Source: Syntrophaceae bacterium UBA4778 (GTDB taxonomy: Bacteria; Desulfobacterota; Syntrophia; Syntrophales; UBA4778). From it: a stretch of 56,712 nt of DNA. The position numbers and the translations under genes are program-made. Location of the stretch: NCBI GenBank assembly GCA_002403175.1, contig DHHG01000167.1, positions 1 through 56,712 on the forward strand, in the 5' to 3' direction. The notes under the pieces were generated by a model. It was not told where the DNA came from. It did no database searches and saw only the letters and a list, made by a program, of their open reading frames with translations. Shown here piece by piece: positions 28,663 to 48,865 of the stretch; position 1 is the stretch's first letter; each line of letters begins with the position of its first letter.

Positions 28663-30909
28663 CTAAAGATTTAACCATAAAGCGAGGTGATATGCCGCAT
28701 AACCGCCCAGGAAGGAAATAACCAGCATCGTAATCAGCGCCAGCAAAAACCATTTGCTATCTTTCATTTCCTGCCGCATCGAGGCTATCGTCGCTGCGCA
28801 AGGGATAAAGAGCATCATCACAACAAGAAAGGCAAGACCGGAGGCGGGTGGCATAACCGTGGGTAAAACGGATCTGAGACCCTCGCCTCCGACATTGTAG
28901 AGAACGCCGAGGGTGGCAATGACATTCTCTTTGGCTACGAGACCTGTTAGCAGCGCGACAATCATCTTCCAGTCGAGTCCGATCCAGGCGCCAATAGGAG
29001 CAATCAGTTTGCCGAACATGGCGAGATAGCTGCTTTCCGTGGTTCCGCCCGGGAAGTTGGAAAGAAGCCAGATTAGAATGGAAATTGCGAGAATAACGGT
29101 CCCTGCCCGTTTTATAAATGCAACCGTTCTGAATTTGACGACGTTCATAATCGTCTTCGGATGAGGCGAATGATAGAGAGGCAATTCCATAATAAACGGC
29201 ATCACTTCATCTTTCATTATGATCTTATTGATAAAAATTCCGGTAATTCCCAGAAGAATGATATTGACGGAAACGACCAGCCAGGCGATGAAGGCCGCAT
29301 GTTCCGGAAATATTGCTGCAGAGATGAAAGTCAAAACGGCCAGCCGCGCAGTGCATGGGATAAAGGGCATCAGAAATATCGTGAGCAGCCGCGCATTTCT
29401 CGATTCCAGAATACGTGCGCCGAGAACGGCCGGAACATTGCATCCGAAACCGAGACACATCGGGATAAAACTCTTCCCGTGAAGTCCGATCAGGTGCATG
29501 AACCGGTCCATCACAAAGGCCGCCCTGGACATGTAACCGACATCCTCCAGAAAGGACATGGTTGCAAAAAATATGAGCAGGATGGGAAGGAAGGTCAGGA
29601 CGGAACCTGCTCCGCCGATTGCTCCATCAATGATAAGGCCCTTTACCCAGAAAGGAGTGCCTCCAAAGAAAGGCTCCAGCCATTGCGAAAAGGAACTCAG
29701 GAGGCCTTCGAGCCATTTTTGTGCGGGAAACCCGATCGCATAAGTCAGGCCGAAAACGATCCCGAATACAGCCAGAAGTATCGGAATGCCGAAAACGGGA
29801 CGGGTCAGGATGTGATCTATCCGGTCCGTCATCAATACCTGCCCGCGCTTGAATCGCGAAATCGAGGCGCGAGTGACCATTTCAATCCAGTCGTATCGCC
29901 CGCCCACAACGGCATGCAGCGAATCTTCATGTGCTATCAAAACTTTCCGGATTTCCTTCCATACCTGATTTGGAAGCATTCCTTCCAGGCTTTGGGAAAC
30001 TTCAGGGTCGCCCTCCATGAGCTTGATGACAGTCCAATGGGACATATACGATTTCTGAACATAAGGCTCGATCAATTCCAGGAGCTGCATGAATATATGT
30101 TTATGATCCTGCATGACATCCGGCAATCTTGGGTTATAAGCAAGCTTGCCTTCATGGAGAGCAATGATATCCGACACCAGCTCCCTGACGCCAATATTCT
30201 TTTTTGCAATCATCGGAATGACAGGTATGCCGAGGGCATCCTGGATGGCTTTCATATTGACGCGGATTCCCTGATTTTCCGCAACATCGGTCATATTCAC
30301 CGCGACGATGACCGGAGGACCGAGCAGCAGGAGCTCCGACAGGAGATATAGACTCCGTTCCAATGCCGACGCATTGACAATGAGAACAACAATGTCTGGG
30401 AATTCATTGATGATGAAATCCCTGGCGACCTTTTCTTCTTCCGAGAAGGCTGTAAGGCTGTATGTCCCGGGGAGATCGATAATCCGCATACGATGATCTC
30501 CGGCAACGTGCACTCCCTCTTTCTTCTCAACCGTTTTTCCCGGCCAGTTGCCCACATGCTGGGAGAGACCGGTGAGGATATTGAAAACAGTCGATTTACC
30601 GACATTTGGCTGCCCGACCAGGGTAATCAGAATGCTTTTTTCTTTTTTCTCGGGTTGAGATATCTCTGCTTCCGGACCGACCCGGTGTGCGGTAATCTTT
30701 TCAGCTTCTCCCCACCCCAGGGCAATTCTCGTGTCGGATGCAAGCAGAAGGACGAGCCCCCCTCTTTTGCGCAATATTTTGATTCGAGAGCCGAGCGAAA
30801 GCCCCATCCCTGCCAGCCGGCTGGTCAGACTCTGGTCGCCGGAAACAGCATGGATAATGCCTTCCTCGTCCTCTTTCAATTCAGTGATTGGGATCAATTC
30901 GCTCTTCAT
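28663..30909 (-). CDS. feoB: Ferrous iron transporter FeoB with fused FeoA domain
   Basis: A 748-residue fusion. Residues about 1-76 are a FeoA-type SH3 domain (SRLAGMGLSLGSRIKILRKR). The GTPase domain follows: G1 VGQPNVGKST (98-107), G3 IDLPGTYSLTAFS, G4 VAVNMTD. The C-terminal half is the membrane Fe2+ permease with two Gate motifs (RPVFGIPILLAVFG region; CLGFGCNVPAVLGAR; FIPCTARL; LFIPCAATIASM) and about ten helices. It imports Fe2+ under anoxia. Most bacteria encode FeoA separately; fusions are known in some anaerobes. Start ATG 30909 has a poor ribosome site. No Fur box was identified in the AT-rich 30910-31081 upstream region. Confidence 0.93.
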   Translation of the reverse strand: MKSELIPITELKEDEEGIIHAVSGDQSLTSRLAGMGLSLGSRIKILRKRGGLVLLLASDTRIALGWGEAEKITAHRVGPEAEISQPEKKEKSILITLVGQPNVGKSTVFNILTGLSQHVGNWPGKTVEKKEGVHVAGDHRMRIIDLPGTYSLTAFSEEEKVARDFIINEFPDIVVLIVNASALERSLYLLSELLLLGPPVIVAVNMTDVAENQGIRVNMKAIQDALGIPVIPMIAKKNIGVRELVSDIIALHEGKLAYNPRLPDVMQDHKHIFMQLLELIEPYVQKSYMSHWTVIKLMEGDPEVSQSLEGMLPNQVWKEIRKVLIAHEDSLHAVVGGRYDWIEMVTRASISRFKRGQVLMTDRIDHILTRPVFGIPILLAVFGIVFGLTYAIGFPAQKWLEGLLSSFSQWLEPFFGGTPFWVKGLIIDGAIGGAGSVLTFLPILLIFFATMSFLEDVGYMSRAAFVMDRFMHLIGLHGKSFIPMCLGFGCNVPAVLGARILESRNARLLTIFLMPFIPCTARLAVLTFISAAIFPEHAAFIAWLVVSVNIILLGITGIFINKIIMKDEVMPFIMELPLYHSPHPKTIMNVVKFRTVAFIKRAGTVILAISILIWLLSNFPGGTTESSYLAMFGKLIAPIGAWIGLDWKMIVALLTGLVAKENVIATLGVLYNVGGEGLRSVLPTVMPPASGLAFLVVMMLFIPCAATIASMRQEMKDSKWFLLALITMLVISFLGGYAAYHLALWLNL

Positions 30910-47320: not shown

Positions 47321-47602
47321 ATGGAATCCAAACATAGAAATGGCCAGCATAAAGGTCAGGTCATGCTTTATGCCCTGAGCACCTGTATCTGGTGCAAAAA
47401 GACAAAAGAGCTTCTGGAAAATCTGGATGTCGATTTTGATTATATCGACGTCGATCAACTGAACAGTCAAGATAAAACCCAGGCGATCGATGAAATCAAG
47501 AAATGGAATCCATCCTGTTCCTTCCCCTCACTGGTCATCGACAATAACCAGTGTATTGTCGGTTTTAAGGAAAAAGAGATTCGGAACAGGCTTGGATTAT
47601 GA
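47321..47602 (+). CDS. Glutaredoxin-like thiol oxidoreductase
   Basis: A 93-residue thioredoxin-fold protein with the active site CIWC (Cys22, Cys25) after the strand VMLYALSTC, a cis-Pro region in CSFPSLVID and the C-terminal [15 protein letters not shown] helix, the usual glutaredoxin/NrdH-like layout. Start ATG 47321 is chosen because GAAAGGAATCAC precedes it; a longer frame from 47105 reads through the debranching gene's end. Its stop overlaps the FTR gene start (ATGA). Likely a redox carrier reduced by the adjacent ferredoxin:thioredoxin reductase and possibly reducing the downstream selenoprotein. Confidence 0.85.
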
Positions 47603-48105
47603 TGGAAAATGAATGGACCGAAGAAGCGGTCGACAGGCTTTATGCGAAACTCAAAAAAGACGCCGAATCGGGAGGATACTATCTGAATCCTGATGAGAAA
47701 TTCACAAAAGATCTCATCAGAGGCCTCATGACCAATCAGGAGCGGTACGGCTACATGTCCTGTCCTTGCAGGCTGGCTTCCGGCGAAAAGACGGAAGATC
47801 TCGATATCATCTGTCCCTGTGACTACCGCGATCCGGATTTGACGGATTATAATGCCTGTTACTGCGCTCTTTATGTATCCCTGGCCGCATTGAAAGGCGA
47901 GCAGGAGATTGGCTCCATTCCGGAAAGGAGGCCGCCTCCGGAAGAAAGGCTTTCAACCGAACCTCATGAATGGGAAAGAATATCCGATCTTCCCTACCCT
48001 GTCTGGCGTTGCAAAGTCTGTGGATACCTATGCGCGCGTGAAGAGCCCCCGGAAATCTGCCCGATCTGCAAAGCGAAAAAGGACCGCTTCGAGCGGTTCA
48101 TGTAG
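47599..48105 (+). CDS. Ferredoxin:thioredoxin reductase catalytic subunit fused to a rubredoxin-like domain
   Basis: A 168-residue protein. The FtrB-type domain has the full Cys set: CPCR (55, 57), CPCD (72, 74) and CYC (87, 89), which hold a 4Fe-4S cluster beside the redox disulfide that passes electrons from ferredoxin to thioredoxin or glutaredoxin. The C-terminal 35 residues form a rubredoxin-type knuckle pair: CKVCGYLC (138-145) and [13 protein letters not shown] (153-165). Such fusions occur in strict anaerobes and probably add an electron entry or sensor. It is coupled by ATGA overlap to the glutaredoxin, and followed 58 bp later by the MerB-like selenoprotein gene. Confidence 0.9.
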
Positions 48106-48163: not shown

Positions 48164-48865
48164 ATGACTTCTACGGATATGCTCAGCAAAGTTTACGGAA
48201 TCATTTTAAGACGGCTGATTGCAACCGGGCAAGCCCCACATTACACGGAGATCGCTGCCGAATCGGGCGTGCAGGTGGAAGAGGGGCGAAAGGCCCTTCA
48301 CGATCTGATAGCTGCGGGAATTCCGGCAATGTGGCTGTATCCCGAAACGGATCTCATCTGCAGTTTTGCTCCGTTCAGCAACCTTCCGACGCAGTACCGG
48401 ATCAGCGTCGAAGGCGAGCAGAAATGGTTCGGCCAGTGAGGATTCGAATCGCTGGCAGTTAGCTGGCTTTTCCCCGGTAAAGTAGTCCGAATCGACACAC
48501 CATGCCTCGACTGCGGTGAGCCCCTTCGCATAGAGATGAAGGACGGCGTTGTATTAAAAGAGGAGCCGAAAGGAATGATGGGATATGTTGCCGTCCCGTT
48601 TTCGAAATGGATGCAGCGATTTCCCTATGCCTGAAGCACGATGAACCTCTTCCGGTCGGAAGAACATATCAGGAACTGGTCCCGATTCGATTTCGCTACG
48701 GAACAGGGCATTGTCCCTCTCGCGGACCTGGTCAGGCTGTTTTCCCTGGACATGGCTAAAAAACGGCTTGAGCCCGATTACGTTGCACGTTGTCAGGAGT
48801 ATGTGGGAGAATTCTTATCTGCAGTTGCCGAACTGGCCAAAACGCGCCCCTTCTGGCACATATGA
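48164..48865 (+). CDS. MerB (alkylmercury lyase)-like protein with two in-frame TGA codons, probable double selenoprotein
   Basis: A 233-residue frame if TGA at 48437-48439 (codon 92) and 48632-48634 (codon 157) are read as selenocysteine. ATG 48164 lies 9 bp behind AAAGGAGG. Residues 1-91 match the MerB N-terminal helical domain in layout; then Sec92-GFESLAVSWLFPGKVV corresponds to MerB Cys96-ALDTL..., TPCLDCGEP to the Cys117 region, and FPYA-Sec157-STMNLFRSEEHIRNW to SF-Cys159-CHVHFFAS...DW. Glu95 takes the place of MerB Asp99. By eye both catalytic cysteines map to TGA. MerB protonolyses carbon-mercury bonds; the natural substrate here is unknown. The spans around the TGAs are open with normal codon use, which argues against a pseudogene. 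It is in an operon-like array with the glutaredoxin and FTR genes upstream. Confidence 0.8.
48432..48467 (+). promoter_or_regulatory. Possible SECIS element for the first TGA (weak)
   Basis: Downstream of TGA 48437-48439, a 3-bp stem GCT (48451-48453)/AGC (48461-48463) encloses GGCAGTT, whose first two bases are G, 14 nt past the TGA. GCCAG (48432-48436) could also pair with CTGGC at 48452-48456 or 48463-48467 around the codon. The stem is short, so the evidence is modest. Confidence 0.4.
48648..48663 (+). promoter_or_regulatory. Probable bacterial SECIS element for the second TGA
   Basis: Perfect 6-bp hairpin TCTTCC / GGAAGA with loop GGTC, beginning 13 nt after TGA 48632-48634; the loop starts 19 nt past the stop, inside the usual bacterial range (about 16-37). 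A G at the start of a small apical loop with a U is the SelB-binding feature of bacterial SECIS hairpins. It lies wholly inside the coding sequence, as bacterial SECIS elements do. Confidence 0.75.

What the first reader, a model, noticed from the sequence alone, without database searches (positions are those of the whole stretch)
48164..48865. Single MerB-like gene with two in-frame TGA codons at the positions of both catalytic cysteines
Two ORFs plus an unassigned stretch merge into one 234-codon frame when TGA 48437-48439 and TGA 48632-48634 are read through; I checked the frame codon by codon (offsets 273 and 468 from the ATG, both multiples of 3). The merged protein follows E. coli MerB by eye along its length, and TGA-1 falls on Cys96 (AWCALDTL) and TGA-2 on Cys159 (SFCCHVHFFAS), the two cysteines needed to cut C-Hg. 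Two independent stops landing on these two positions by decay is improbable. A double-Sec carbon-metal lyase would have stronger metal affinity than the Cys enzyme and may act on organomercury, organotin or organoselenium compounds. I recall MerB-like proteins being noted near selenoprotein loci (name SaoL), but I have not checked that.
Basis: partly seen in the sequence, partly recalled or inferred. Interest (0 to 1): 0.95.

Follow-up and report, generated by a model that had tools for sequence, protein, structure and literature searches.

The report
Mercury-lyase-like gene with two selenocysteines
A bacterial gene related to organomercury-cleaving enzymes carries a UGA stop codon at exactly the two positions where those enzymes have their catalytic cysteines; both are likely read as selenocysteine, which would give a predicted carbon-metal lyase with two selenium atoms in its active site that standard gene annotation would break into pieces.

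Summary
Window 48164-48865 (+) is one MerB-family frame (PF03243, E 3.8e-20) interrupted only by TGA at codons 92 and 157, which align with MerB Cys96 and Cys159.

Of 49 related loci, 45 are readable at both sites: 43 have TGA at both, 2 have TGC at the first. In a 297-genome sample, all 20 close matches carry exactly two in-frame TGAs (the sets overlap). Six distant loci have Cys codons at both sites.

It is neither MerB proper nor SaoL by NCBIfam cut-offs. I found no double-Sec MerB in the papers searched, but two key papers are not held. Sec read-through is very likely; lyase activity and substrate are inferred, organomercury being the best guess. Many relatives also carry the mercury methylase HgcA, but the link weakens when genome size is considered. 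The window's own Sec genes could not be checked.

The parts
48164..48865 (+). coding sequence of the MerB-family protein, two in-frame TGA, final TGA stop
   Evidence: dN/dS about 0.05-0.10 in all three segments against L001
48147..48154 (+). AAAGGAGG, ribosome-binding-site-like, 9 bases before the ATG
   Evidence: sequence
48437..48439 (+). TGA, codon 92, likely Sec; aligns with MerB Cys96
48451..48467 (+). likely SECIS 1: 6-bp stem GCUGGC/GCUGGC, 5-base loop (AGUUA here; GGUCU in 31 of 51 rows)
   Evidence: 99.3% of cells paired in 47 distinct rows, no covariation; loop census; broken in the two loci with TGC at codon 92
48632..48634 (+). TGA, codon 157, likely Sec; aligns with MerB Cys159
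48647..48664 (+). likely SECIS 2: up to 7-bp stem with GGUC loop (outermost pair is C/A in the window, so 6 pairs)
   Evidence: 98.8% paired, 3 pairs with changes on both sides, 0/500 shuffles as high; window pairs
47599..48105 (+). ferredoxin-thioredoxin reductase beta-like plus rubredoxin-domain protein, upstream, possible electron donor (not seen beside the gene in other loci)
   Evidence: PF02943, PF21349; NF041072 at 57.2 bits, below its cut-off of 160; no tblastn hit in 49 loci, some with short flanks
47321..47602 (+). glutaredoxin-like protein (CIWC)
   Evidence: PF00462 (read from 47318)

Best explanation
The gene at 48164-48865 encodes a MerB-family protein in which UGA codons stand at both catalytic cysteine positions (MerB Cys96 and Cys159); they are likely translated as selenocysteine, and the product would likely act as a diselenol carbon-metal lyase, most probably on organomercury. 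Shown: the frame, the homology, TGA at both sites across many genomes, Cys codons at both sites in distant relatives, and a conserved potential hairpin after each TGA; the MerB fold is predicted. Inferred: SelB with tRNA-Sec decodes both UGAs by way of the two hairpins; Sec92 and Sec157 grip the metal and Glu95 (MerB Asp99 position) delivers the proton that releases the hydrocarbon; the bound metal is then handed to thiols or sulfide rather than to MerA. The glutaredoxin and the Ftr-rubredoxin protein encoded just upstream might keep the selenols reduced in this organism.
Against: Sec incorporation is not shown by experiment, and the window's own genome is not held. No Rfam match over gathering score. 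Hairpin 1 has no covariation, and in free folding of the stretch after TGA 1 it is the minimum-energy form in 40, 35 and 28 of 44 sequences at 36, 42 and 54 bases (hairpin 2: 43, 40 and 36 of 43). One relative (G002) lacks a selA match, one (G005) has no tRNA-Sec over cut-off, and one of 16 double-TGA genomes (G026) has no selB match; gaps in draft genomes are possible. Activity and substrate are inferred only: MerB equivalog cut-offs are not met, Asp99 is Glu, and no mercury gene stands out among neighbours.
Confidence: 0.75

Rival explanations
1. The protein is a double selenoprotein of the MerB fold, but not an organomercury lyase: it binds or transfers metal, or cleaves another bond (C-As, C-Sn, C-Se, C-halogen), or works as a redox protein.
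For: MerB equivalog and SaoL cut-offs not met; MerA over cut-off in only 1 of 17 relatives; no mercury genes among the commonest neighbour families; Glu at the Asp99 position and Ser at Cys160.
Against: Both metal-ligand positions, a carboxylate at the Asp99 position and the Cys117 position are invariant in 36 aligned relatives, and the predicted fold matches MerB over 191 residues.
Confidence: 0.3
2. UGA is read as tryptophan or by unspecific read-through, not as selenocysteine.
For: 56 of 205 database homologues are written with Trp at both sites, which is what a UGA=Trp code would print (their DNA was not checked); two more have W and one has S at site 1.
Against: TGA ends 11 of 30 chosen long window ORFs and 12 of 46 members of this family; Cys codons, not TGG, replace TGA in the relatives read as DNA; hairpins follow both TGAs; selB is present in the 17 relatives searched.
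Confidence: 0.03
3. Decayed gene or sequencing error: the TGAs are broken Cys codons.
For: One-base changes (TGC or TGT to TGA) would suffice; L045 shows a frame break in one relative.
Against: The same two TGAs recur in dozens of assemblies, with dN below dS downstream of both.
Confidence: 0.01

Closest known systems
MerB organomercurial lyase (PF03243; PDB 3F0O, MerB2 5C17)
   Same: Predicted fold including the N-terminal part, both metal-ligand positions, a carboxylate at the Asp99 position, the Cys117 position
   Different: Both ligands are UGA-encoded; Glu for Asp99; Ser for Cys160; longer C-terminus (model residues after about 208 unaligned in most MerB rows); no mer genes found beside it; 15-20% identity in structure alignments; below NCBIfam MerB cut-offs
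SaoL, MerB-like organometallic lyase of the Sec-assisted organometal system (NF040728)
   Same: MerB-related selenoprotein, one Sec in a CU motif according to the review PMC13188914 (passages seen)
   Different: 36.2 bits against a cut-off of 140; two separate Sec positions; no SaoL over cut-off in 17 relatives (none of its 14 control genomes gave a match, so it has no positive control); the original paper (PMC9879109) is not held
Double-Sec families such as FtrB_double_U (NF041072) and MbdU (NF045648)
   Same: Two Sec in one protein (review table)
   Different: Neither model matched the MerB-like protein at E 0.1. A relative of FtrB_double_U without in-frame TGA happens to lie just upstream.

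Membership tests
Pfam MerB (PF03243) | profile score over gathering cut-off | tested here: met
   72.6 bits, cut-off 27
Pfam MerB (PF03243) | MerB fold | tested here: met
MerB equivalog (NF009710, NF033555) | curated score cut-off | tested here: not met
   35.5 of 193 and 24.6 of 200 bits
MerB equivalog (NF009710, NF033555) | Cys96, Asp99, Cys159 (named as essential in PMC8261052, passages seen) | tested here: not met
   UGA, Glu, UGA at these positions
MerB equivalog (NF009710, NF033555) | cleaves C-Hg bonds | not testable with these tools
   needs an enzyme assay
SaoL (NF040728) | curated score cut-off | tested here: not met
   36.2 of 140 bits; four relatives 29-48 bits
SaoL (NF040728) | Sao operon neighbours | tested here: not met
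   none of the 5 nearest neighbours scanned matched a Sao model at E 0.1; genes further off not scanned
bacterial selenoprotein | in-frame UGA at a Cys position, with Cys homologues | tested here: met
bacterial selenoprotein | SECIS-like hairpin just downstream of each UGA | tested here: met
   bSECISearch not available, no Rfam match; covariation for hairpin 2 only
bacterial selenoprotein | Sec machinery in the same genome | not testable with these tools
   own genome not held; present in nearly all of 17 relatives
bacterial selenoprotein | Sec found in the protein | not testable with these tools
   needs 75Se or mass spectrometry

The most novel reading that the evidence does not exclude
A hidden family of diselenol organomercury lyases lets anaerobic bacteria, many of them mercury methylators with HgcA and no MerA, undo methylmercury, handing the metal to sulfide; it has been missed because both catalytic codons are UGA and annotation splits the gene into pieces.
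Probability: 0.3. Interest if true: 0.93.

Novelty: new variant of a known kind. Interest (0 to 1): 0.8.

Why it matters
Replacing both metal-binding thiols of a carbon-metal lyase by selenols would be a striking natural experiment in mercury-selenium chemistry and makes the role of each ligand testable. It would also offer a candidate demethylase in genomes where a standard gene call would not show an intact MerB. One survey states that none of its genomes with MerB alone carry HgcAB (PMC8261052, passages seen); another reports three MAGs with both hgcAB and merB and one strain proven both to methylate mercury and to degrade methylmercury (PMC9948709, passages seen). Here 11 of 17 relatives have HgcA over cut-off, this double-TGA gene, and no MerA over cut-off, so methylmercury budgets based on gene counts may miss a sink.

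Tried and rejected
SaoL identity: rejected on score. UGA=Trp and pseudogene readings: rejected. Operon logic: the glutaredoxin and Ftr-rubredoxin genes upstream were not found near the gene in any of 49 loci (tblastn E 1e-5; some loci have short flanks), and neighbour families are mixed (131 of 158 listed neighbour ORFs scanned; no Pfam family in more than 4), so context does not fix the substrate. HgcA association: 10 of 16 double-TGA genomes against 73 of 281 others (p 0.003), but 9 of 13 against 28 of 64 (p 0.13) among genomes with selB and at least 3.7 Mb, a limit I chose afterwards; adding contig-edge HgcA fragments picked by eye gives 11 of 13 against 29 of 64 (p 0.014). Kinship was not controlled, so I do not lean on it. 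selB in the same 297 genomes is too common to discriminate (263 of 297 overall, 15 of 16 double-TGA genomes). Other TGA read-through genes in the window: none convincing by eye among those listed. Plasmids: no DNA match; the protein search found 33 records, none covering 80% of the query; the 8 listed are annotated merB at 25.3% identity. PHROGs: none. Alphaproteobacteria: 8 of 337 genomes matched, only G014, where the query came from, closely. Tree of 60 rows (database proteins sampled one in six): TGA/TGA and Cys92 rows interleave, so Sec and Cys may exchange at site 1; but the Cys in database proteins ending at residue 156 (140 of 205) was not checked in DNA.

Full report
Observation. The frame at 48164-48865 (+) starts with ATG nine bases after AAAGGAGG and runs 234 codons with TGA at codons 92, 157 and the end. 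Read through, it matches PF03243 at 72.6 bits.

Conservation of the TGAs. A genome-collection scan gave 49 loci. Of the 45 readable at both sites, 43 have TGA/TGA and two alphaproteobacterial ones (L037, L042) have TGC/TGA. In 297 genomes drawn from one phylum, 28 had any match; of 34 listed places the 20 close ones, in 16 genomes, contain exactly two TGAs; the 14 weaker ones are distant or fragmentary, 11 without TGA, two with one and one fragment with two. These two sets overlap. Eight further loci were read: L067-L069 and L071-L073 have TGC or TGT at both sites (the last two align weakly), L065 has TGA/TGA, L066 is not readable; L074-L077 were not looked at. Among 205 database proteins (the best 120 of 572 and of 347 hits), 56 show W/W, 140 have C at 92 and end at residue 156, 4 are C/C full length, and 5 are single exceptions, among them two W and one S at site 1. 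W/W is presumably TGA read as Trp by the gene caller; their DNA was not checked.

Translation continues past both TGAs. Against L001, dN and dS are 0.078/1.13 in the 80 codons before TGA 1, 0.063/1.35 between the TGAs and 0.108/1.03 in the 70 codons after TGA 2; ten further pairs give dN below dS wherever both could be computed. The 46 genes end in TAA, TAG or TGA (20, 13, 12; one contig runs out), so the final TGA is taken as a plain stop.

Recoding signals. After TGA 1 a 6-bp stem closes a five-base loop (GGUCU in 31 of 51 rows, GGUC in its first four bases in 39; AGUUA in the window); after TGA 2 a stem of up to 7 bp closes GGUC in 52 of 52 rows. Synonymous-codon shuffles of 44 sequences show extra stability only just downstream of each TGA: mean z -1.41 and -1.31 at +3 and +12 for site 1, -2.57 and -1.97 for site 2, between -0.71 and +0.32 elsewhere (one search is an earlier version on half the set). 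Free folding gives hairpin 1 as the minimum-energy form in 40, 35 and 28 of 44 sequences at 36, 42 and 54 bases, and hairpin 2 in 43, 40 and 36 of 43, so hairpin 1 is the weaker case. Hairpin 2 has 98.8% of cells paired, three pairs with changes on both sides and 21 such cells; 0 of 500 shuffles reach these values or the covariation score, 52 of 500 reach its number of pair types, and slid versions pair 45-64%. The shuffles do not control for kinship, and the structure was derived from these sequences. Hairpin 1 is 99.3% paired but shows no covariation beyond shuffles. Rows: A2 leaves out the two TGC loci; A3 leaves out L040, whose contig ends; of the 16 loci L050-L065, seven were added, eight left out as repeats of genomes already present, and L065 left out because my motif search missed it; checked later, it pairs 6 of 6 and 7 of 7. 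In L037 and L042, whose first site is TGC, hairpin 1 is broken (4 of 6 pairs, all G-U, and 1 of 6) while hairpin 2 is intact with a changed but paired base pair. That GGUC resembles the loop of the E. coli fdhF SECIS is recalled, not from a call.

Machinery. The window's genome is not held. One of 16 double-TGA genomes in the larger sample has no selB match.

Mechanism. Established MerB chemistry uses two cysteines and an aspartate to bind the metal, protonate the carbon and hand Hg(II) to thiols or MerA (PMC4525700, abstract passages and others). By analogy Sec92 and Sec157 would bind the metal and Glu95 would supply the proton; this is inference. MerA is over cut-off in only 1 of 17 relatives, so the product would need another acceptor; sulfide in these anaerobes is my proposal. 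The upstream glutaredoxin and Ftr-rubredoxin genes could keep the selenols reduced, but this arrangement was not found elsewhere.

Mercury link. HgcA is over cut-off in 12 of 17 relatives, though not in the two closest ones (G001, G002). In the 297-genome sample it is found in 10 of 16 double-TGA genomes against 73 of 281 others, an excess that shrinks to 9 of 13 against 28 of 64 among large selB-bearing genomes. It is suggestive only. Co-occurrence of hgcAB with ordinary merB has been reported for three MAGs (PMC9948709, passages seen).

Novelty. NCBIfam of June 2026 has no family matching over cut-off for the window protein or for five relatives. Review tables list one single-Sec MerB-like family, SaoL (PMC13188914 and PMC9312934, passages seen). 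Paper searches (in one search only 15 of 388 were listed) and term look-ups in PMC12013277, PMC2398784 and PMC5029168 (passages) showed no double-Sec MerB. The two papers that I think most likely to mention it (PMC9879109, PMC12013261) are not held and supplementary files were not searchable, so prior mention cannot be excluded.

Verdict. A real, conserved, very likely double-selenocysteine branch of the MerB superfamily; its activity awaits the bench.

Noticed in passing
L019 downstream of the gene; related ORFs in L018, L020, L022, L023, L025, L026: In L019 the double-TGA gene is followed by ORFs for Fe-S proteins (GlpC/CCG type), a GlcD-like FAD oxidase and C-GCAxxG-C-C proteins, mostly below NCBIfam cut-offs; relatives of some of these lie near the gene in the other loci.
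   Followed up: partly
G003 contig 1 at 1390994-1391383; G016 contig 7 at 85041-85352: Further MerB-like stretches with one in-frame TGA in the matched part, separate from the double-TGA loci.
   Followed up: no
L037, L042: Alphaproteobacterial forms with Cys (TGC) at site 1 and TGA at site 2, a natural single-Sec variant.
   Followed up: partly
L045:4371-4872: The two halves of the gene lie in different frames, a frame break or assembly error.
   Followed up: no
window 47599-48105: Ftr beta plus rubredoxin-domain fusion without in-frame TGA, related to the double-Sec FtrB family, directly upstream.
   Followed up: partly
window 28663-30909: Large ORF that looks by eye like a FeoA-FeoB fusion for iron uptake; not tested.
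   Followed up: no
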